Below are positions 11,661-20,843 of a DNA stretch of 35,796 nucleotides, piece by piece. Source of the stretch: a virus; IMG/VR virus record IMGVR_UViG_3300005435_000818, positions 1 to 35,796 of that record, one strand, 5' to 3'. How positions within the stretch are numbered: position 1 is the stretch's first letter; every line of letters starts with the position of its first letter. The notes beneath the pieces were generated by a model. It did not search any database and had not been told where the DNA came from. It was given only the letters and a program-made list of their open reading frames with translations. The translations under genes were made by a program, and so were the position numbers.

Positions 11661-12878
11661 TTAGTACGTGAGGACGTCCGGCCCGTTGAGCGTGCTCGCG
11701 TCGAGCACGAACCCCGTGGCGACGGCCTTCTGGGCGATGTAGGTGGTCCGCTGCACCTGCGACGGCGCGTCGTACTGGTGGGCGACGCTCTGGATCGTCG
11801 CGACGACGTTCGAGCCGCCGCGCGGCTCGGTGATGGTCACCACGTCGCCGATCTCGCGCGTGAGCTGCTGCGTCAACTCGGCGTCGGAACGGCTGGCGAG
11901 GCCGATGCCGCGGATGGGCGCGCGCGGCTGACTCTGCACGCCGACGAGCCATTGCGCCAGCCCGAGCGCCTGGGCGTCGCTGCGCAGGTTCGGCGACACG
12001 ATCGGCGTACCGTCCCGGTTGCCGTAGGCGTCGCGGCTCGCGCCGTCGATGGCCGTCTGCGCGACGCCGCCGGTGCGCGTCACCGTCTGGCCGTTGACGA
12101 TGGACAGCGCGTCGGCCGAGCCCTTGATCGCCGTGACCATCGTGCCGTCGAAGGTCGCGACGGCGGCGCGGCCGGTCAGCATGTACTCGCGGGTGAAGTA
12201 GGTCGCCCGGCCCTGCGCGTCGAAGAAGAAGACACCCAGGTCGGTCTGGAGCAGGTTCTGGATGAGCGTGAGCGCCGTCTTGACGCCGTCGGCGTCTTGC
12301 CAGACCGGGACCACATCGCCGCCCGCCTGGATATTGCGCATCGCCGGGTCCGACCAGCCGACCGCGACGAGGATCGCCGTGATGAGTTGCGCCGTCGTCT
12401 GGTTGATCTGGGTCGCCATCGCCGGGGGGCGCGCACGGTTGAGCCACTCGAGACCGTCGACCGCCTGGATGACGCTTTCCTGCGCGGTCGCGACGGGGTC
12501 GTGCTCGATCTGATTGATGAACCCGAAGAACAGGTAGTGAGACGTCGCCAGCAGCGTGCGCCGCACCCGCAGCGGCCGCATCGGCACCAGTTGGCCGGCC
12601 AGCGGGCTCGTGGGGTTGAGCGTGTTGTACTTGCCTGCGCTGTCCTTGAGCCGCAGCGTGCACGTCCCCTGCTGCATCGTCTGGAGGTCGGACGGGCGCC
12701 CGCGAGTGATCGCGACGGATTTCACCTCGCGGGTCACGTCAGTCCAGGTATAGCTGCCCGAGCCGATGGGCGCCGAGAGCACGTCGGGTCCGCCCAAGAG
12801 CGAACTGTCAAGCGTGAAGACGCCGGTAAGCGCGGTGGACCAGGCGATCTCGACGATATCGGTGACAGGCGAGGTCAC
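11661..12878 (-). CDS. Minor tail / tail-tip protein
   Basis: The product has 405 residues from a GTG in a GTGA overlap with the tape measure stop. The N-terminus has a beta-domain with SYTWTDVTREVKSVAITRGR, a motif common in distal tail or tail-hub proteins. The middle repeats hub-like beta segments (LFFGFINQIEH, GVFFFDAQGRATYF) and the end includes EIGDVVTITEPRGG, as in baseplate hub domains that bind the tail tube end. The matched DSSLLGGPDVLS near the start and DASTLNGPDVLTY at the extreme end form an internal repeat. Immediate placement after the tape measure supports the tail-tip call. Confidence 0.75.
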   Translation of the reverse strand: MTSPVTDIVEIAWSTALTGVFTLDSSLLGGPDVLSAPIGSGSYTWTDVTREVKSVAITRGRPSDLQTMQQGTCTLRLKDSAGKYNTLNPTSPLAGQLVPMRPLRVRRTLLATSHYLFFGFINQIEHDPVATAQESVIQAVDGLEWLNRARPPAMATQINQTTAQLITAILVAVGWSDPAMRNIQAGGDVVPVWQDADGVKTALTLIQNLLQTDLGVFFFDAQGRATYFTREYMLTGRAAVATFDGTMVTAIKGSADALSIVNGQTVTRTGGVAQTAIDGASRDAYGNRDGTPIVSPNLRSDAQALGLAQWLVGVQSQPRAPIRGIGLASRSDAELTQQLTREIGDVVTITEPRGGSNVVATIQSVAHQYDAPSQVQRTTYIAQKAVATGFVLDASTLNGPDVLTY

Positions 12879-15800
12879 ATGTTCACCAGCCGCTTGAGCT
12901 CGGGGTTGATGATGCTGGCGAGTTGGGCGACCATGGCGCGGTCGTCGCCCAGGTAGGTGCCGTACAGGTTGATCGTGACGCCGCCGCCGATCCCTCCGAG
13001 TTGGTTGTTCGGCACGATGCTGCCCGGCTGCGTCGGCATCCAGAGCTCCACGCCGTGCTCCCCGACCCGGATCGGGTAGTTGGGGAGCACCGGGCCGCCC
13101 GAGGCGTGCGAGAACGCGGGGCCGACGAAGCCGCCGGTGTCGGTCATCGAGATCGGCGCGGCACTTCCGCCCCCGCCGCCGAAAGAGCCGAAGCCCCCGC
13201 CCGATGTCGCCGTGCCGAACCCGGATGTCGGCGGGGCGGTCCCGGCGACGCCGGGGAGCTGGAGGCCCGCGACCCCGGCGATGGCGGCCGACGCCCACGC
13301 GAGCAGCGCCGTCACCGACGCCTGCGCCTGGGCCGTGAGGGCGGGCAGGAGCTGGGTGAACTGCGCCTGGATGATCGCCGCCTGGCGCTCCATGCTATCC
13401 TTGAGCGCCTGCTCCTCCTTGGCGGCGCTGTCCTTGATCGCCGCCTCCTTCTGGGTCAGCGCGTCGTTGATGGCCTTGATGCTCTGGTCGCGCTGGGTGT
13501 TCGTGCGGGCGATCTGCCGCGCGAGCGCCTGGTCGGCCAGGCTGTCGGTGAACGACTGCAAGGCCATCTGCTGGTCCATCGAGAAGCGCCGCTGGGCGTC
13601 CTCGTCCTGGCGGCGCCGCGCAAGGTCCTCCTGGCTGTTCCGGTAGCTCAGGTCGATCTGGTCGCGCTGCGCCTGGGTGGTCGCCTGGGCCAGGTCGCGG
13701 TTGTGCCGGAAGGCGTTGTCGGCGTCCTCCTGCTGGCGCTTGAAGGCCGTCGCCGCCGCCTGCTGGGGGCCGGTGAAGGCCGCCAGGGCGCCCCGGTCCG
13801 CGCGGGATTGGGTGATGCTGTCGATGGCGTTCTGGATGGTCAACGCCGCCTGCTGGGTGATCTGCGCGATCTGCTGCGACGCCTGGGAGATGGCGCCGTT
13901 GAGCGCCGAGCCCACCGATGCGCCCAGGTCGATGAGCTTCTGCTCGGTGCCGAAGCGCAGGTTGTCGATCTGGCCCAAAAAGTCCGTCGCGGCGCCTTCC
14001 ACGGTCCCCGAGAGTTGGGCGGACGTGCTTTGCAGCACCTTGATGCCGCCCAGCAATCCCAAGTTCAGGCCCGCGGCGGCCTGCTCCCCCTGCGCCATCA
14101 GCACCGTGCTCGGGCTGCGGATGCCGAGCAGGTTGGCGATCGCGTCGGGGATGGAGCCGGCCACGGCCTGCGCCGCGGCGATGACCTGCCCGGCCGAGCC
14201 GCGGATGCCCGCGGCGATACCGTCGACGATATTGGTGCCGATGCGTTGCGACGAGGCCACGACCTGCTCCTGGGCACCGGAGATCGCGCTGGCGATCATG
14301 GTGATGATGGCCTTGCCGACGCTCTCGGCCTGAACGCCAAGCACATCATTGATGCCGCTCGCGATGCCCTTGGCGATCTGGGCCAGGTTCGTCGCCACGT
14401 GGGCGAGCAGGTCGCCGACGGCGAGCGCCGTGCCCAGGGCGTGCTGAAGCACCGATCCCAGCGCGCTCCCCGCTTCGCTCGGGTCGATCTGCCGGATGCC
14501 GTCGGCGAGCGCGGCGCCGATCTTGATGGGGACGGGCACCAGCACCCCGGCGACGCGCTCGAGGAGGCCCTCGGCGGCGCGGGCCAACCACTGGCCCAAC
14601 GCCTCGCCGGCCGCCGTGGCATCGAGGTTGCGGATGCGGTTCGTCACACTCTGGACGGCGGCGGTGAGCCCGTCGAGCATGCTGCTCGCCACGATGCCCC
14701 AGTCGATATCTTTGGCCGATTGGCGGAAGTACGCCGTGAGCCCGGGGCCGGCCGATGGCATGGAGTCGATCCCCTGGTTCGGGTTCGTCGCGGCCCAGAC
14801 GACGGTCCACCGCACCTTGGACCATTGATCGCGGAGCCAGGCGGTGACTTCCGTGTCGATGTCGGCGAGCGCCGCGCCGATGGTGTCGGCGACGCCCTTG
14901 GCATTGACCCACACCGCCGTCCAGTCGATCTTCGCCCACTGGGCACCGAGCCACGTCGTGAGCGCGATGCTGAGGTCGCCGAGCGCCGTCCCGATGTCGG
15001 CCGCGATCCCCTTCGCGCCCTGCCACACCGATGCCCAGTCGACCTTCGCCCACTGGTCGCGCGCCCAGGCGCCGATGGCGGCGGAGGCATCGCCGAGCGC
15101 CGCAGCGAGTGAGCCGAGCAGCCCCGTGGCGCCGCGCCAGATGGCCGCCCAGTCGATCTTCCGCCACTGCTCAGACAGCCAGCCCGTGAGACGTCCCGCC
15201 AGGTCGCCAGCCGCCGAGAGTGCGCTGGTCACCACGTCGCCGACCGTGCTCAGCGCGTCGCGCAATGCCGCCCACATCGTCGTGAAGTCGCCCGATTTCA
15301 GCGACGTGAACGCGGTATCGAGATCTTGTCCCAGGCTGGAGAGCACCGCGCCCGCCGCACTTGCCGCCTGCGGCAGCGTGCCGAACAGGAAGTCGGCCAG
15401 TGCCGTGAGCGGCCCCTTGGTCGCGTCGAACGCGAGCCCGAGGTTGAACGCCTCCTGCGAGAGCGCCAGGAAAAAGCTGCTGGCGTCGATCGCCGCCACG
15501 GCCTTGACCGCGTTCGCGACGGCCCCCAGCACGTCCGCCGCCGTGCGCGCGGCCGGCCCGAGCGTGTCCGCGAGCAGGCCGCCGAGCGCCTTGACGCCCG
15601 GCAGCATGCCGTTCAGCGCCTGGATCGCCCCGACGAGCACCGGCTGCAAGCGCTCGCCCAGCTCGATCCTGGCCGTCGAGAGGTTCGCCTTGAGCACGTC
15701 CCACTGGCCCGCCGCCGTCTGGAGGGTCTTGTTGAAGCTTTCCTGGGTGACGGCGTTGACGGCGGTCGTGTCGTTCAGCTTCGCGAGGTTGGCGTTCGTG

Positions 15801-16765
15801 TCGTCGTATGCCGTGCCGAGCTCCGCCGCGAAGCCGAGGCCGCCGCGCAGGGCCGGGATGATCCGCAGGTTGAGCTGCTCCCGCTCCGCCTCGGTCAGGT
15901 TGGTCCGCTCTTCGGCTTGGCGCAGGTAGTCGATGGTCCCCACCAGGCCGCGCGCCGCGAGGTTCTGGGCGTCGAACGCCGAGGCGACGCCGCCCGTGCC
16001 CGACAGGTTGGCGAGCTCTTGCAGCGCGGCCTTGGCGGCGGCGCCGGGGTTGAGCATGTGGGTCAGCATATCGGTGACCTGGGTGCCGGCCACGTTCACG
16101 TCGGGGAAGCCGTGCTTGGTCAGGGCGGCCGTGACGGACAGCACGTCGTTCAGGCCGACGCCCATGTTGGCCGCGATGCCGATGGCCTTCGACTGCGCGT
16201 CGGTGAAGGCGCCCAGGGTCGTGTTCGCGAGCTGGGTGCCGATGTGTAGCTCGCCCATGACGGTGTTCGAGCGGGCGAGCACCTCGTTGTACTGGCCGGT
16301 CGCCGACCCCGCGTGCGACACGTCGAGCCCGTACTCGTGCATGACCGAGGAGAGCATGTTCGTCACGTCGGCCGCGTCGGCGCCGGTCGAGATGGCGCTC
16401 TCGGTGCCCGCCTTCGCCTCGGCCATCGATGCCGTGAAATCCTGGGTGACGTTCTGGGCGTGCTCGAAGGCGTGGGCGATCTGCTCGATGGGCGCGCCGG
16501 TCTGGTTGGCGAGGTCCAGGATGCCGCCCTGGAGCTGCTGCACCTGGGCCGTCGTCAGGCCGGTGTTGTTCCCGATGGTCGTGAGCATGGCGTTGAAGGA
16601 CGCCGCCGCGCCCGCCGCGTTCGCCAGGCCCACGCCTAGGGCGGCGACGCCCGCGCCCGCCGCGATCCCCAGGCCGCCGAGCACGCCGATCTTCTCGGCG
16701 ATGCCGTCGAGTACCATGGAGGCCGCGTCGTACGCCGCGACGCGAATTACCAGATCTTCACTCAT
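12875..16765 (-). CDS. Tape measure protein
   Basis: The product has 1296 residues. It shows the TP901-type N-terminus (about residues 45-400: TTAQVQQLQGGILDLA, IGIAANMG, DVNVAGTQVTDMLTHML). Hydrophobic stretches (about 400-520) follow, then four Trp-rich repeats near 525-655 (QWAKIDWxxVWxxAKG), a highly charged coiled coil (about 1005-1135), and a glycine-rich end with GEHGVELWMP, typical of siphophage tape measures. It sets tail length and passes through the tube during DNA entry. At about 1.5 angstrom per residue the tail would be near 195 nm. GAGAG precedes ATG 16765. It is separated from the tail chaperones by inserted plus-strand genes. Confidence 0.92.
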   Translation of the reverse strand: MSEDLVIRVAAYDAASMVLDGIAEKIGVLGGLGIAAGAGVAALGVGLANAAGAAASFNAMLTTIGNNTGLTTAQVQQLQGGILDLANQTGAPIEQIAHAFEHAQNVTQDFTASMAEAKAGTESAISTGADAADVTNMLSSVMHEYGLDVSHAGSATGQYNEVLARSNTVMGELHIGTQLANTTLGAFTDAQSKAIGIAANMGVGLNDVLSVTAALTKHGFPDVNVAGTQVTDMLTHMLNPGAAAKAALQELANLSGTGGVASAFDAQNLAARGLVGTIDYLRQAEERTNLTEAEREQLNLRIIPALRGGLGFAAELGTAYDDTNANLAKLNDTTAVNAVTQESFNKTLQTAAGQWDVLKANLSTARIELGERLQPVLVGAIQALNGMLPGVKALGGLLADTLGPAARTAADVLGAVANAVKAVAAIDASSFFLALSQEAFNLGLAFDATKGPLTALADFLFGTLPQAASAAGAVLSSLGQDLDTAFTSLKSGDFTTMWAALRDALSTVGDVVTSALSAAGDLAGRLTGWLSEQWRKIDWAAIWRGATGLLGSLAAALGDASAAIGAWARDQWAKVDWASVWQGAKGIAADIGTALGDLSIALTTWLGAQWAKIDWTAVWVNAKGVADTIGAALADIDTEVTAWLRDQWSKVRWTVVWAATNPNQGIDSMPSAGPGLTAYFRQSAKDIDWGIVASSMLDGLTAAVQSVTNRIRNLDATAAGEALGQWLARAAEGLLERVAGVLVPVPIKIGAALADGIRQIDPSEAGSALGSVLQHALGTALAVGDLLAHVATNLAQIAKGIASGINDVLGVQAESVGKAIITMIASAISGAQEQVVASSQRIGTNIVDGIAAGIRGSAGQVIAAAQAVAGSIPDAIANLLGIRSPSTVLMAQGEQAAAGLNLGLLGGIKVLQSTSAQLSGTVEGAATDFLGQIDNLRFGTEQKLIDLGASVGSALNGAISQASQQIAQITQQAALTIQNAIDSITQSRADRGALAAFTGPQQAAATAFKRQQEDADNAFRHNRDLAQATTQAQRDQIDLSYRNSQEDLARRRQDEDAQRRFSMDQQMALQSFTDSLADQALARQIARTNTQRDQSIKAINDALTQKEAAIKDSAAKEEQALKDSMERQAAIIQAQFTQLLPALTAQAQASVTALLAWASAAIAGVAGLQLPGVAGTAPPTSGFGTATSGGGFGSFGGGGGSAAPISMTDTGGFVGPAFSHASGGPVLPNYPIRVGEHGVELWMPTQPGSIVPNNQLGGIGGGVTINLYGTYLGDDRAMVAQLASIINPELKRLVNM

Positions 16766-16799: not shown

Positions 16800-16827
16800 T
16801 ATGTCGATTAGGGAAAAGGGGACCGAG

Positions 16828-17073
16828 ATGCAAACGCTGCTAAGAGTTGCTGCGGTTTTGGTAGGACTTGTGCTCGTTGTATCGGCATTGTTCGTCGGTG
16901 CCGCGGTGCTACTCGCCATCGGGACGATGCTGGGATCGCCCTACGGCGTCGGCTATGCAATAGGCACCGTGGTGGCATACGGCGCCATAGCCTTGTTGGT
17001 GGTAGCACTTGTCGCGGGTGCCTACGCGGCGCTGCGATTTGCCCGCAGAAGCGGCGTCCCTCGCAAGGCATAA
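16828..17073 (+). CDS. Two-TM membrane protein (moron candidate)
   Basis: The product has 81 residues. ATG 16828 is chosen over 16801 because AAGGGGACCGAG precedes it. Two long hydrophobic helices are seen (VAAVLVGLVLVVSALFVGAAVLLAI and GYAIGTVVAYGAIALLVVALVAGAYAA, each shortened by flanking charges), followed by a basic tail (RFARRSGVPRKA). It is opposite in direction to the tail genes, has its own promoter and a hairpin after the stop, and is less GC-rich. It could be a superinfection-exclusion membrane protein, but nothing in the sequence proves that. Confidence 0.65.
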   Translation: MQTLLRVAAVLVGLVLVVSALFVGAAVLLAIGTMLGSPYGVGYAIGTVVAYGAIALLVVALVAGAYAALRFARRSGVPRKA

Positions 17074-17076
17074 AGA

Positions 17077-17102
17077 AAGGCGAGAGGGTTCCCTCTCGCC
17101 TT
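17077..17102 (+). terminator. Hairpin terminator of the TM moron gene
   Basis: AAGGCGAGAGGG (17077-17088) pairs with CCCTCTCGCCTT (17091-17102), 12 bp with a tight TT centre, starting 4 bp after the stop codon. There is no strong U-run beyond the two T's at the end. Confidence 0.6.
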
Positions 17103-17180
17103 CGCCATGCGATGCCGGGCCGCGCCGCGCGGAGCCACGCCTTGCTCTGCTTCGCCCCAGCCATGCCGAGCCGAGTTCTG
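17102..17180 (-). repeat. Left imperfect inverted repeat of the regulated cassette
   Basis: Read on the minus strand this segment contains CAGAACTCGGCTCGGC (17180-17165), GAAGCAGAGC (17153-17144) and TCGCATGGCGA (17112-17102). The same three blocks, in the same order and with similar spacing, occur on the plus strand at 18754-18838. It lies just outside the repressor gene. The intervening bases differ. Confidence 0.6.
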
Positions 17181-17203
17181 CTCGGTAACCTACCGAAGTA
17201 GGT
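17171..17203 (-). terminator. Paired hairpins after the repressor gene
   Basis: On the minus strand ACCTAC-TTCG-GTAGGT (17203-17188) makes a 6-bp stem with the very stable UUCG tetraloop, followed by CCGAG-CAGAA-CTCGG (17185-17171). They begin 6 bp after the stop of the repressor gene. No U-tract follows. Confidence 0.5.
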
Positions 17204-17208
17204 AGCCC

Positions 17209-17475
17209 CTACCGCCGCTGTTCAGGCTCCGGTAGGGTATCGTCAACCGAGCGCCCCCAGAGGACGCCAGGATCGACGCGGAGTATCTCAGCGAGTTTTC
17301 GTACCGTCGCCGGCCGCGGCGTATTCACGCCCTGCTCGATGCGATTGAGCGTATTCGCGGTCAGGCCCGCCTCGCGTGCCAGCTCCGCCTGCCCGTAGGA
17401 GCGGAACTCACGCCAGCGGCGAATGTTCTCTCCGACTGCCACGACCTTGCCCTGGGGACGGTCCATCACTAGCAT
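17209..17475 (-). CDS. Cro/CI-type HTH repressor
   Basis: The product has 88 residues from ATG 17475; ATG 17466 is an alternative. A complete XRE helix-turn-helix is visible (NIRRWREFRSYGQAELAREAG, then LTANTLNRIEQGVNTPRPATVRKLAEIL, about residues 18-68), with no C-terminal cleavage or oligomer domain. It is transcribed away from the three-gene operon. A TATGAT -10 (17490-17485) would put the start only a few bases before the ATG. Likely operators with CATACAC/GTGTATG half-sites lie in the shared intergenic region. It probably represses the divergent operon and itself. Confidence 0.85.
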   Translation of the reverse strand: MLVMDRPQGKVVAVGENIRRWREFRSYGQAELAREAGLTANTLNRIEQGVNTPRPATVRKLAEILRVDPGVLWGRSVDDTLPEPEQRR

Positions 17476-17484
17476 AGTGACTTC

Positions 17485-17493
17485 ATCATACCA
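17485..17493 (-). promoter_or_regulatory. Extended -10 promoter of the repressor gene
   Basis: On the minus strand TGG-TATGAT (17493-17485) ends 9 bp before the ATG at 17475, so the mRNA would be leaderless or nearly so. The TG overlaps the first operator-like ACCATACAC. Confidence 0.5.
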
Positions 17494-17559
17494 CCATACA
17501 CGCGGCGTGGCTAGCGGCTTGACACCACATACACGAATGGGTACACTGATAGTACGTTA
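17493..17559. promoter_or_regulatory. Operator candidates for the HTH repressor
   Basis: Three related words occur in 67 bp: ACCATACAC (17493-17501), ACATACAC (17527-17534) and GTGTATGGT (17551-17559). The first and third are exact reverse complements. They overlap the repressor's -10, the spacer of the divergent promoter, and the region just after its -10, which is where a Cro/CI-type regulator would bind. Confidence 0.6.
17519..17547 (+). promoter_or_regulatory. Strong promoter TTGACA-17-TACACT
   Basis: A consensus -35 TTGACA (17519-17524), a 17-bp spacer and TACACT (17542-17547) precede the three-gene operon by about 48 bp. This is the best sigma-70-type promoter in the window. Confidence 0.8.
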
Positions 17560-17594
17560 TGTGTATGGTGCGTCAATAGAACAGGAGACCAAGT

Positions 17595-17840
17595 ATGCCG
17601 CCATCCGCCCCACCTGCCTTGGACCCGCGCCTGTCCCCGTACCTCAGCCGCGCCGCCGACACCGTGGAGGGACGGGACCGCCTCGCGGACGGCTGCGAAC
17701 TGCTCGCCGATGCGCTCCTCGTGGGCGGGGTGGTGCGAGACCGCCGGCGCGCCCGCGTGCTGGCGACACGCCGCGTCGAGATGCTCGTGGCCCGCGCCCT
17801 GGAAGAATCCTATAGGCCCGAGGAAGGTATCTGGCAGTGA
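17595..17840 (+). CDS. Hypothetical protein, first gene of regulated cassette
   Basis: The product has 81 residues, with ATG after CAGGAGACC. It is helical with a PPSAPPALDPRLSPYLSRAA start and a basic middle (VVRDRRRARVLATRRVEML). It has no known domain or membrane helix. Its TGA overlaps the next gene's GTG by four bases. The position suggests a partner of the RAMP-like protein or a small regulator. Function unknown. Confidence 0.65.
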   Translation: MPPSAPPALDPRLSPYLSRAADTVEGRDRLADGCELLADALLVGGVVRDRRRARVLATRRVEMLVARALEESYRPEEGIWQ

Positions 17841-18421
17841 GCAACATCCTGACCGCCTGCGTGACGATCAAGGGTACCCGGCCGCTTCTCTGGCACTGGT
17901 TCGGTCCCGACGCCATCCCGCTGGAAAAGGGCGAGCGGACGGGCGTCGCCGGGAACGACCCGGCCGAATGGCGGCAAACGGTGACATATCTCCCGGATAC
18001 GCGCCAGCTTTACCTCGACCCGTCCCAGGTGTTCGCCTGCGTGCGCGACGGCTCCAAGAATGTCAAGGAGGGCCGCGGGTCGATCCAAGCCAAGGTAACT
18101 TCCACGCTCCAGGTGGTCGATGACCTGGTGCTGATCGACCGCTACCTACCCGTAGAGCCCATGCCGACCGACCGTACGGAGCCGGTCTATATCGACCGCC
18201 GGGGTGTCGTCAATCCGGCGACCAGGGGCAGGAACGTGCGGTATCGCGTCGCCGCATCGGCCGGCTGGTCCGCGAGCTTCCGGCTGCTGTGGGATAGGAC
18301 CGTCGTCTCTCGCGAGAAGATGGAGGCCGCCATCCGCGACGCAGGCACGCTGGCCGGCATCGGCAGCGGCCGGAAGATCGGCATGGGCCGGTTCGAGTTG
18401 GTCGGTTTCGAGGTCGCGTGA
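17837..18421 (+). CDS. RAMP-like (Cas7-like fold) phage protein
   Basis: The product has 194 residues from a GTG in a GTGA overlap. VTIKGTRPLLWHWF at the start resembles a phage/plasmid family I know only as unnamed proteins with 'TPLLMHRF'. VVNPATRGRNVRYR in the middle and GIGSGRKIGMGRFELVGF at the end complete that pattern. The closing glycine-rich loop before a strand is the hallmark of RAMP proteins (Cas5/6/7 relatives, RRM-like fold), which bind RNA. No catalytic histidine typical of Cas6 is evident. It may bind RNA or single-stranded DNA. There is no CRISPR array nearby. The fold call is inference from pattern. Confidence 0.55.
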   Translation: MSNILTACVTIKGTRPLLWHWFGPDAIPLEKGERTGVAGNDPAEWRQTVTYLPDTRQLYLDPSQVFACVRDGSKNVKEGRGSIQAKVTSTLQVVDDLVLIDRYLPVEPMPTDRTEPVYIDRRGVVNPATRGRNVRYRVAASAGWSASFRLLWDRTVVSREKMEAAIRDAGTLAGIGSGRKIGMGRFELVGFEVA

Positions 18422-18615
18422 TGCCCAGGCACCGGCCGCCCCGAGAGGTTTGGGAGGCGCTACGCCTCATCGTGTGGAAACGCGACGGCAAGCGGTGCGT
18501 TCGCTGCCGCGTCCCCGTCGCGTGGGAAGAGATGCACCTTGACCACATTCGCAGCGGCAAGAGGGCCACCAACAAGCTCAGTAATTTGCGGACGCTCTGT
18601 GCCCGCTGCCACTGA
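18421..18615 (+). CDS. HNH endonuclease, apparently shortened by in-frame TGA
   Basis: The product has 64 residues; the ATG overlaps the previous TGA (TGATG) and GTG at 18418 is an alternative. The HNH core is clear: VWKRDGKRCVRCRVP, then MHLDHIRSG (catalytic His), then NKLSNLRTLCARCH ending in the second zinc pair. The TGA follows directly after CARCH, where HNH enzymes normally continue with an Arg/Lys-rich helix. The same frame then stays open for 34 codons with a fitting continuation, so the gene seems to be cut by one CGA-to-TGA change or read through. The core fold might survive. Confidence 0.75.
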   Translation: MPRHRPPREVWEALRLIVWKRDGKRCVRCRVPVAWEEMHLDHIRSGKRATNKLSNLRTLCARCH

Positions 18616-18720
18616 CTGCGGGACAATGAGCGCCACCGTGGGATGGCGTCGTGGTGCATCGAACGGGGCCACATACCGCCCGATTGGCGATCCCTGGTCT
18701 GGTCCGACCCACCGGGCTAG
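18616..18720 (+). pseudogene. In-frame C-terminal remnant of the HNH gene
   Basis: After the TGA at 18613-18615 the frame continues LRDNERHRGMASWCIERG, then HIPPDWRSLVWSD, and ends at TAG 18718-18720. LRDNERHRGM fits the helix that follows the last cysteine pair in HNH nucleases. This is either the decayed end of the gene or the product of stop-codon readthrough. Confidence 0.6.
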
Positions 18721-18746
18721 GGGCTGCCCTCTTCGGAGGGCTACGC

Positions 18747-18838
18747 GGCTCGGCAGAGCTCGGCTCGGCTCGGCTCGGCTCGGCAAAGCAGAGCTCGGCT
18801 CGGCTCGGCTCGGCGGGGCTTCGCATGGCATGGCGAGG
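18747..18838 (+). repeat. CTCGG microsatellite within right inverted repeat of the cassette
   Basis: Two tracts of the pentamer CGGCT/CTCGG (about 18757-18784 and 18792-18815) are separated by CAAAGCAGAG. The segment carries, on the plus strand, CAGAGCTCGGCTCGGC (18754-18769), AAAGCAGAGC (18785-18794) and TCGCATGGC (18821-18829). These match the minus strand of 17180-17102, so it forms the right arm of an imperfect inverted repeat about 80 bp long. The pentamer expansion is a likely slippage product. Confidence 0.6.
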
Positions 18839-18844
18839 ATGTGC

Positions 18845-19419
18845 TCATTCGAGCAAATCCTCCTCACTCTCGAACAACTCCTCGTCGGCGTCCATCCCGG
18901 CGTAGAGCGAGAACCGCTCCGCCTCGATGCCCAGGACGGCCTTCAGCCGCTCCCACTCGCCCGCCGGCATACGCCGAAGCTCGTGCGGCAGCTTGCCGAA
19001 CTGCCGACCGATCAGCACCATCGCGTAGTCCTCGGGGCAGGGCGTGCCCTCTCTCAGGCCGACCGGACGACGCTGATCGTTGAGGAAGAGCCGGAGGGCG
19101 CGGCGTCGGGAGGGGGGAAGTCGCGCTTCGCCTGCTCCTCCATCGCCCGCTGGAAGCCGACGCCGATCAACCCCAGGAAGGCGGGGTGGACGCGCGCGAT
19201 CATCGCGTCGTAGTCCACCGGGATCGGCCCGTCGTCGTCCTCCAGGTTCCACGACACGACGAGGCGCGGGATCAGCCGGATGTTGCGCCGCGGGTCGTCG
19301 TCCTCTAGGTCGTCGGCGACGTTGAGCGGGGCGTCGAGCCGGACGACGACCTCCGCGCCCTCGTAGTCGCCCTCGAACTGGAGCGTCGCCGTGCGCGGCG
19401 GCAGCTTGAATTTCGCCAT
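18845..19419 (-). CDS. Tail assembly chaperone, -1 frameshift fusion (GT-type)
   Basis: The fusion of about 191 residues is made when ribosomes on the shorter chaperone frame slip back one base at C-CCC-CCT (19117-19111), which sits exactly in X-XXY-YYZ register (..TTC CCC CCT). After the slip the frame runs to TGA 18847-18845, adding an acidic helical domain (EDYAMVLIGRQFGKLPHEL ... DADEELFESEEDLLE). Lambda gpG/gpGT and most siphophages make two chaperones this way to load the tape measure. The second frame has no good start of its own near the overlap, which supports frameshifting. Confidence 0.8.
19054..19419 (-). CDS. Tail assembly chaperone (G-type)
   Basis: The product has 121 residues, with ATG after GAGGTG. 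The N-terminus MAKFKLPPRTATLQFEGDYEGAEVVVRLD is a typical beta-rich chaperone start, followed by acidic loops (LEDDDPRRN) and helices. It lies between the major tail gene and the tape measure, as in other siphophages, and contains the slippery heptamer near its end. It should coat the tape measure during tail assembly together with the frameshifted longer form. Confidence 0.8.
   Translation of the reverse strand: MAKFKLPPRTATLQFEGDYEGAEVVVRLDAPLNVADDLEDDDPRRNIRLIPRLVVSWNLEDDDGPIPVDYDAMIARVHPAFLGLIGVGFQRAMEEQAKRDFPPPDAAPSGSSSTISVVRSA
19111..19117 (-). promoter_or_regulatory. Slippery heptamer C-CCC-CCT
   Basis: CCCCCCT (19117 to 19111 on the minus strand) lies in the correct phase of the 0 frame for a -1 shift, 55 nt before the 0-frame stop codon. 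Both P-site CCC and A-site CCT can re-pair as CCC. Confidence 0.8.
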
Positions 19420-19787: not shown

Positions 19788-20183
19788 CTACTTGTGGCCC
19801 CAGCTCCCGCGCGCCTCGAAGTTCCCCGAGAGCGTGACGGCGCCCGCGATGCCGGCCTTGATGGAGGCGTCGAGCCACGCGGGGCCGTACCAGTACTTGG
19901 TCGGCGCGTCCGACGACGGGTAGAGGTACATGTTGATGCCGTTCGCCGACACGGCGCCGATGAACATCGTGTCGTAGGTGTCGTCCCAGAAGCCGGTGAG
20001 CGTGCCCTTCACATCGGGCAGCCCCTGGACCTTGACCAGGTTCGTGTCGCCGAGCGCGGTCACGTCCACCTTCTGGGTGGTCTGGTCGAGCGTCCAGTCC
20101 GACAGCGACACCGCGCCGCTCGGCGCCGAGACGCCGTCCTGGCTGAGGTAGATGACAGCCTTTCTTCCGTGGTAACGAGCCGT
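19788..20183 (-). CDS. Major tail (tube) protein, probable ACG start
   Basis: The product has 131 residues if read from ACG at 20183. Actinophage-type tail tube features are clear: ARYHGRKAVIYLS at the start, LSDWTLDQTTQKVDVTALGD (about residues 27-46), VQGLPDVKGTLTGFWDD, INMYLYPSSDAPTKYWYG and AVTLSGNFEARGSW at the end. It polymerises into the tail tube. No ATG, GTG or TTG occurs between the in-frame stop upstream and GTG 20111, which would delete the conserved first 24 residues. AGGA lies 9 nt before the ACG. The HNH island starts only 60 bp away, so its insertion may have altered the start. Confidence 0.8.
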   Translation of the reverse strand, partial: TARYHGRKAVIYLSQDGVSAPSGAVSLSDWTLDQTTQKVDVTALGDTNLVKVQGLPDVKGTLTGFWDDTYDTMFIGAVSANGINMYLYPSSDAPTKYWYGPAWLDASIKAGIAGAVTLSGNFEARGSWGHK

Positions 20184-20203
20184 ATTACACCGTCCTGTCT
20201 ATG

Positions 20204-20212
20204 TGGTATCAT
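20204..20212 (+). promoter_or_regulatory. Extended -10 promoter of second HNH gene
   Basis: TGG-TATCAT lies 31 bp upstream of the ATG at 20244. It is about 20 bp from the start of the major tail gene on the other strand. Confidence 0.5.
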
Positions 20213-20243
20213 CGACGCAGGCCTTCACAAGAGAGGAGCGACG

Positions 20244-20843
20244 ATGACAGCGTGTGCATGCGGCTGCGGAGAGCAACCGAACGACGGAAAGAAGTTCGTC
20301 CGCGGCCATTACTCGCGGACGCCGGAAGCCAAGGCGGGTTATGCGGCGCGTAGGCGCCTGCACGAGCCGCCCAATCCTTCGGGCCTGTGCATGTGCGGCT
20401 GCGGAGAGCCGGTTCCTCGCGCGAAGGCGACGGAGCGCGGCACCATCGCGGGCGAGTACGTGCGCTATGTCAACGGCCACTTCATGCGAGGGAAGCGTGG
20501 CCCGGAGACGAGCAGGTGGAAAGGCGGTCGGTGGTTGCACAAGTCGGGCTATGTGCAGGTGTACGCACCCGAGCACCCGGCGGCGACGATGGACGGCTAC
20601 GTCCCCGAACATCGCCTCATCTGGGAAGAGGCGAACGGTCGCCTACTCAAGCCGAATGAGGACGTTCACCACATCAACGGCGTCAAAGATGACAACCGGC
20701 CGGAGAACCTCGTGGCGCTCACCAAGTCGGCGCATCACCGGCTGCACGGCACGGAAGAGCTGTCGCGCTACCATCGAGAGCACCCCGAGGCCAACCGAGA
20801 GGCGGGCCGCAAAGGTCTCATCGCGCGATGGGGGCACGACTAG
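20244..20843 (+). CDS. HNH homing endonuclease (HNH_3 type)
   Basis: The product has 199 residues, with ATG after GAGAGGAGCGACG. Two N-terminal zinc-binding-like modules (CACGCGEQ ... FVRGHYSR and CMCGCGEPV ... YVNGHFMRG) precede the nuclease. The HNH_3 core is classic: GYVPEHRLIWEEANGR, then DVHHINGVKDDNRPENLVAL (catalytic His pair and Asn), then HHRLHG (about residues 115-170). It is probably a free-standing homing endonuclease. It is inserted antisense between the glycosyltransferase and the major tail gene, whose start codon it may have damaged. Confidence 0.9.
   Translation: MTACACGCGEQPNDGKKFVRGHYSRTPEAKAGYAARRRLHEPPNPSGLCMCGCGEPVPRAKATERGTIAGEYVRYVNGHFMRGKRGPETSRWKGGRWLHKSGYVQVYAPEHPAATMDGYVPEHRLIWEEANGRLLKPNEDVHHINGVKDDNRPENLVALTKSAHHRLHGTEELSRYHREHPEANREAGRKGLIARWGHD

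What the first reader, a model, noticed from the sequence alone, without database searches (positions are those of the whole stretch)
17102..18838. Regulated cassette (repressor, unknown, RAMP-like, HNH) bounded by imperfect inverted repeats inside the tail module
Between the tail chaperones and the tape measure, normally adjacent, sits a self-contained unit: a Cro/CI-type repressor on one strand and a four-base-overlapping operon of an 81-residue unknown, a RAMP-like protein and an HNH nuclease on the other. Three blocks (CAGAxCTCGGCTCGGC, AAGCAGAGC, TCGCATGGC) occur in matching order and similar spacing as inverted copies at 17180-17102 and 18754-18829. A putative nucleic-acid-binding RAMP fold next to a nuclease under tight repression could be a defence, anti-competitor or mobile unit.
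Basis: partly seen in the sequence, partly recalled or inferred. Interest (0 to 1): 0.8.

Follow-up and report, generated by a model that had tools for sequence, protein, structure and literature searches.

The report
Phage VIPR guide-RNA cassette with HNH
A phage carries, beside its tail ruler gene, a small RNA-guided weapon of the recently described VIPR kind (a CRISPR-related RNA-binding protein, a nuclease gene and two guide-RNA genes that look like inverted repeats), here with its nuclease gene interrupted by a stop codon.

Summary
The cassette is real and is a VIPR system (Viral Interference Programmable Repeat; preprint PMC13142463). The 194-aa "RAMP-like" protein is a Vipr: a profile of its relatives matches the deposited SUSP1 Vipr (PDB 36pp_D, E 7e-9), and its predicted fold is Cas7/Csm3-like. 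The "imperfect inverted repeats" are two outward-facing arrays of GGY-NN pentamers, the guide (vrRNA) genes of such systems. They are the only two in the window and look like diverged copies of one array: NN positions differ at 9/22 bases, the scaffold at 3/33.

Relatives show the same trio: 60 of 62 have such arrays beside Vipr by score (one more by eye), and 47 of 62 have an HNH gene downstream. In five other phages, as here, the cassette sits beside the tape-measure gene. Decoded with the published one-base-skip rule, guides of two relatives point to the same motif of HK97-type capsid genes.

No target was found for the window's own guides. Its HNH gene has an in-frame TGA where homologues read through, and its right array is low-complexity, so this copy may be decaying. 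It is a new member of a known, very new kind. The mobile-unit reading is not supported; the RAMP-plus-nuclease anti-competitor reading is.

The parts
17837..18421 (+). vipr gene (194 aa, GTG start): RAMP protein, RRM fold with C-terminal glycine-rich loop (GIGSGRKIGMGRF)
   Evidence: profile of relatives matches SUSP1 Vipr 36pp_D E 7e-9; phrog_4652 E 2e-8; Cas7/Csm3-like model
18418..18615 (+). HNH accessory (vap) gene, N-terminal 65 codons up to an in-frame TGA
   Evidence: Pfam HNH E 7.6e-8; same gene follows vipr in 47 of 62 relatives
18616..18720 (+). rest of the HNH frame after the TGA (LRDNERHRGM...IPPDWRSLVW), still conserved
17102..17182 (-). left vrRNA array, about 16 GGC-NN units with one phase shift
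   Evidence: 33.2 bits against at most 17.6 in shuffles
17077..17102 (-). hairpin after the left array (12-bp stem, then T-rich stretch): vrRNA tail or terminator
18747..18846 (+). right vrRNA array, about 19-20 units, NN mostly TC, self-complementary
   Evidence: 57.6 bits; fold z -2.7
18835..18862 (+). hairpin at the 3' end of the right array (GAGGAT..ATCCTC)
17209..17475 (-). Cro/CI-type HTH regulator (88 aa), upstream of the left array on the same strand
   Evidence: Pfam HTH_31 E 5e-12; not conserved beside vipr in relatives
17485..17594 (.). divergent control region: promoter-like TTGACA-17-TACACT on + (17519-17547), two weaker on -, inverted CACCATACAC motifs at 17492-17501 / 17561-17570
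   Evidence: consensus matches only
17595..17840 (+). 81-aa ORF of unknown function overlapping vipr by 4 bases
   Evidence: no family match, no relative in the fetched loci

Best explanation
This is a phage-borne VIPR system with an HNH accessory nuclease. Inferred mechanism: two outward transcripts, held in check by the HTH repressor, each end in a vrRNA made of GGY-NN pentamers plus a hairpin tail. Vipr coats a vrRNA and reads double-stranded DNA with the NN dinucleotides, skipping one target base per unit, usually the codon wobble base. This blocks or marks the DNA of rival phages, and in intact relatives the HNH protein would cut it or strengthen the block. The left and right vrRNAs arose by duplication of one array and then took on different NN. 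Shown here: family membership of Vipr, the arrays, the recurrent HNH partner, the recurrent place beside the tape-measure gene, NN-over-scaffold divergence, and capsid-gene matches of two relatives' guides. Taken from the preprint: RNA expression, binding, silencing. Not shown: activity or target of this copy, whose HNH gene carries a nonsense codon.
For: Profile match to SUSP1 Vipr 36pp_D, E 7.1e-9. Cas7/Csm3-like model. Only two GGY-type arrays in 35.8 kb, both at the cassette ends. Arrays beside Vipr in 60 of 62 relatives by score; 38 of 41 arrays of the viral loci within 1.5 kb of Vipr. Array-only search leads back to Vipr homologues: 57 of 126 loci scanned at E<=1e-3. HNH downstream in 47 of 62. 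NN differs 9/22 against scaffold 3/33 between the two arrays, p 0.008. Guides of L014 and L016 decode to capsid peptides at skip 1 only. Preprint text.
Against: No target for the window's own guides. HNH frame interrupted by TGA. Several scaffold triplets are AGC or CGC instead of GGY, and the right array is longer than the 9-16 units reported and of low complexity. Expression and binding untested here.
Confidence: 0.93

Rival explanations
1. A mobile cassette with terminal inverted repeats, spread by the HNH endonuclease in a homing-like way, the RAMP protein being cargo.
For: The ends are inverted and alike; an HNH gene is present; the pair occurs at different places in phages (L002 away from, others beside, the tape measure).
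Against: The ends are pentamer guide arrays with hypervariable NN; relatives with opposite-strand arrays show no end similarity; arrays also lie inside cassettes, between vipr and HNH; no integrase or transposase among the cassette genes.
Confidence: 0.05
2. A decayed, non-functional VIPR remnant: Vipr still open, but the HNH gene is broken and the right guide is a slipped TC-rich expansion.
For: TGA at 18613-18615, absent at that position in 49 homologues; low-complexity self-complementary right array; no target for either guide.
Against: Vipr keeps the family's invariant residues; the rest of the HNH frame is conserved without frameshift; VIPR can silence without a nuclease (preprint); the stop may be an assembly error. 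This reading is compatible with the best explanation: it concerns the state of the copy, not its kind.
Confidence: 0.4
3. A stray class 1 CRISPR-Cas gene (Cas5/6/7) picked up by a phage, for example as an anti-CRISPR.
For: Cas7/Csm3-like fold; weak Pfam RAMPs hit, E 0.034, below the cut-off.
Against: The sequence relative in the PDB is Vipr; PADLOC Csm4 and Cas6 only at E 0.03-0.05; no repeat-spacer array in the region.
Confidence: 0.02

Closest known systems
VIPR of Escherichia phage SUSP1 (PMC13142463; PDB 36pp)
   Same: Small RAMP protein with detectable sequence similarity to the solved chain; GGY-NN arrays as guide genes; phage-borne; few genes.
   Different: HNH nuclease as accessory gene instead of a DNA-binding vap; guides in two inverted arrays at the two ends; an HTH regulator; location beside the tape-measure gene; no target found for this copy.
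Nuclease-bearing VIPR types (III and V in the preprint)
   Same: A predicted DNA nuclease as accessory gene. A relative with the same HNH gene has arrays interspersed with type II hammerhead ribozymes (L161), an architecture the preprint describes.
   Different: The preprint finds these types enriched in host defence islands; here the cassette lies in a phage virion module. The type number was not assigned: the supplement was not available.
Csm3/Cas7 of CRISPR-Cas types III and VII
   Same: RRM-based fold over the whole protein, Z 10-11.7.
   Different: No CRISPR array and no other cas genes in the cassette; pentamer guides; 11-17% identity.
Felixounavirus LNA6 relative (OM630585, L003)
   Same: Vipr-like protein at 25% identity with GGY arrays nearby.
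   Different: No HNH gene found next to it.

Membership tests
VIPR | Vipr protein: ancestral RAMP of about 20 kD with RRM core and G-loop | tested here: met
   36pp_D (SUSP1 Vipr) E 7.1e-9 with the profile of 24 relatives; model; 194 aa
VIPR | vrRNA genes of alternating GGY and variable NN next to vipr | tested here: met
   two arrays at the cassette ends, with some AGC/CGC triplets; NN more variable than scaffold
VIPR | 9-16 repeats followed by a conserved structured 3' tail | tested here: inconclusive
   left about 16, right about 19-20 units; both followed by hairpins, but the two tails are not alike
VIPR | accessory vap gene acting on DNA | tested here: met
   HNH gene recurrent downstream of vipr; this copy interrupted by TGA
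VIPR | DNA recognition by NN with a one-base skip | tested here: inconclusive
   window guides: no target; relatives L014 and L016: capsid sites at skip 1 only
VIPR | vrRNA expressed and bound by Vipr | not testable with these tools
   needs small-RNA sequencing and pull-down
CRISPR-Cas class 1 | CRISPR repeat-spacer array beside the RAMP gene | tested here: not met
   repeat search of 16800-19200 shows only pentamer arrays and chance repeats
mobile element with terminal inverted repeats | a recombinase or transposase inside the element | tested here: not met
   cassette ORFs are HTH, unknown, Vipr and HNH
mobile element with terminal inverted repeats | empty-site junctions at the repeats | tested here: inconclusive
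   no close relative of the phage found

The most novel reading that the evidence does not exclude
A phage-resident, nuclease-armed branch of VIPR that settles repeatedly beside the tape-measure gene, attacks rivals through their most conserved virion genes (capsid, possibly terminase) by reading codon positions 1 and 2 so that synonymous changes do not give escape, and makes new guides by duplicating an array and changing only its NN positions.
Probability: 0.4. Interest if true: 0.75.

Novelty: new member of a known kind. Interest (0 to 1): 0.55.

Why it matters
In the paper library searched, VIPR is described by one 2026 preprint. This locus adds a member with a nuclease accessory gene inside a phage virion module. 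Its inverted pair of diverged arrays suggests how guides may arise by duplication. Its relatives suggest that nuclease-type VIPRs aim at capsid genes with the wobble base skipped, which can be tested directly. It also warns that such arrays can be mistaken for inverted repeats of mobile elements.

Tried and rejected
Targets of the window's guides: scans at skip 0-3 in 1.4-1.9 Mb, exact patterns in viral contigs and decoded peptides against phages gave chance-level hits only. In one search the right guide ranks first (22/24, L152), but L152 had been fetched with that same guide, so this is circular. A match of the right guide to the adjacent tail gene (18857-18900), seen by eye, did not stand out in the scans. 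One hit, L190:5264-5286, has 9/12 upstream bases at an odd phase; not accepted. Host-genome pattern searches with three Bacilli-type guides and one Paenibacillus guide: no hits. Empty site through the neighbouring tail protein and the capsid protein: no relatives in viral contigs. HMMER on decoded peptides found nothing, probably too short. The L012 guide resembles the terminase motif YADSAEPKSI (20/24 bases in a terminase gene of L104), but its peptide had no tblastn match, so it is only suggestive. Rfam: nothing of note in the cassette. 36pp is not among the fold matches shown (library ends April 2026).

Full report
Observation. The cassette is as described: a Cro/CI-type HTH gene on the minus strand (17475-17209) and, divergently, an 81-aa ORF, a 194-aa RAMP-like ORF and an HNH ORF with four-base overlaps. 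On the minus strand to the left lies the tape-measure gene (12875-16765, PHROG tape measure E 1.5e-20). The inverted similarity of the two ends is real.

What the ends are. Written in fives, both ends read xxGGC xxGGC. A period-5 scan finds exactly two such arrays in 35.8 kb, at the two ends of the cassette, and none in shuffles. A scoring version gives 57.6 and 33.2 bits against a maximum of 17.6 in shuffled windows.

Relatives. Scans of viral contigs with the RAMP protein found 25 loci at 36-64% identity; genome contigs gave 37 more, from Chloroflexales, Acidobacteria, Bacilli, Cyanobacteria and others. Of the 25 viral loci, 22 have GGY-NN arrays near the gene by score, two have GTY-NN arrays (L020, L021) and L018 has degenerate ones seen by eye. 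Of the 37 genome loci, 29 have GGY arrays, seven cyanobacterial ones have GTY arrays, and one, a partial match (L189), has none. In the viral set with the window, 38 of 41 arrays lie within 1.5 kb of Vipr, where 26% would be expected from length (arrays of one locus are not independent). The reverse test also holds: loci fetched by an array pattern alone, scanned with a Vipr profile, give 57 hits at E<=1e-3 among 126 loci, most of those listed touching or close to an array (the 126 include L003 and L148-L152, fetched otherwise).

Identification. The preprint PMC13142463 describes this anatomy as VIPR: a small ancestral RAMP (Vipr), vrRNAs of 9-16 YNNGG repeats with a tail, and accessory vap genes. 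The profile of 24 relatives matches the deposited SUSP1 Vipr chain 36pp_D at E 7.1e-9. The model of the window protein (pLDDT 87.6) resembles Cas7 of type VII and Csm3, Z 10-11.7. Membership is therefore tested, not only recalled.

The HNH partner. An HNH gene of one type follows vipr in 18 of 25 viral and 29 of 37 genome relatives, on the same strand. In the window its frame is cut by a TGA directly after the last CxxCH. In 49 homologues that position is V, A, T, E, I or C, never a stop. Conservation continues after the TGA, so the stop is recent, or an assembly error, or is read through; these cannot be told apart here.

The two arrays. Aligned from their 3' ends, 11 units differ at 3 of 33 scaffold bases but at 9 of 22 NN bases (Fisher p 0.008), and they share odd scaffold triplets (AGC AGC). 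I read them as one vrRNA gene duplicated, inverted, and given new NN. Opposite-strand arrays of five relatives show no such likeness, so alike inverted ends are not a feature of the system. The right array is dominated by TC and strongly self-complementary, which may be repeat expansion.

Place in phages. PHROGs identify the long ORF next to the cassette as tape measure in L004, L009, L011, L012 and L019, as in the window; three further long ORFs (L007, L010, L015) had no match at that threshold. L010 has a tail sheath and major head gene in the same locus, L019 a major tail gene. In Microcystis phage Mwe-Yong1, a distant capsid relative, small genes adjoin the tape measure without a cassette. 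The preprint reports that its nuclease-bearing antiviral types are enriched in defence islands, so the phage tail module is an additional home. The genome-contig relatives were not sorted into prophage and island.

Targets. None was found for the window's guides. For relatives, reading NN as codon positions 1 and 2 (one-base skip), with one fixed rule for ambiguous pairs, gave ILLPEGAAKPQSEKTYAKKTPPIETVA (L016) and WLTKTQKAAPVAEKATKPTSTYELVEYLWL (L014), both antisense. Their only phage matches are annotated major capsid or head proteins, 5 of 5 and 4 of 4 records, at the weak E-values expected of short queries (5-10). A letter-reversed control matched nothing. These two guides were picked by eye from about 70 because they looked like capsid motifs, which is a selection. 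On DNA, the best skip-1 site of the L014 guide in L112 (30 of 38 bases, next best 23) and in L015 (25, next 21), and of the L016 guide in L015 (29 of 46, next 24), lies antisense in the capsid gene at one homologous site; in L112 the L016 guide's capsid site (26) ties with the next best. Skips 0, 2 and 3 do not show this. L193-L195 were picked through the peptides and are not independent. The pooled test over 73 guides favours skip 1 only mildly.

Conclusion. The cassette is a VIPR system with an HNH accessory gene beside a phage tape-measure gene, with signs of decay. The kind is known; the member, its place, its inverted duplicated guides and the capsid matches of its relatives' guides are new details. 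How it acts follows the preprint and is inferred for this copy.

Noticed in passing
window 19794-20843 (+): A second, unrelated HNH ORF (349 aa; Pfam HNH_3 E 3e-15; PHROG HNH endonuclease E 3e-26) also lies on the strand opposite to the virion genes, about 1 kb to the right of the cassette.
   Followed up: partly
window 16801-17073 (+): A 90-aa ORF with hydrophobic stretches lies on the plus strand between the tape measure and the left array; only sub-threshold matches to membrane families.
   Followed up: no
L020:8057-8692, L021:2831-3129, L178-L181 and L184-L186: A subgroup of relatives, including all cyanobacterial GTY cases, has arrays with the scaffold GTY instead of GGY, directly between vipr and HNH.
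   Followed up: partly
L161:6866-7722: Marinithermofilum abyssi locus with vipr, HNH and seven type II hammerhead ribozymes interspersed in the array.
   Followed up: partly
L161:6934-7014: The first guide of this array decodes to QKGGVSKTTSAI.., resembling a ParA-type Walker A motif.
   Followed up: no
L006:5889-7397 (+): A 503-aa protein with phage integrase domains and a C-terminal HNH_3 domain lies just upstream of the vipr region.
   Followed up: no
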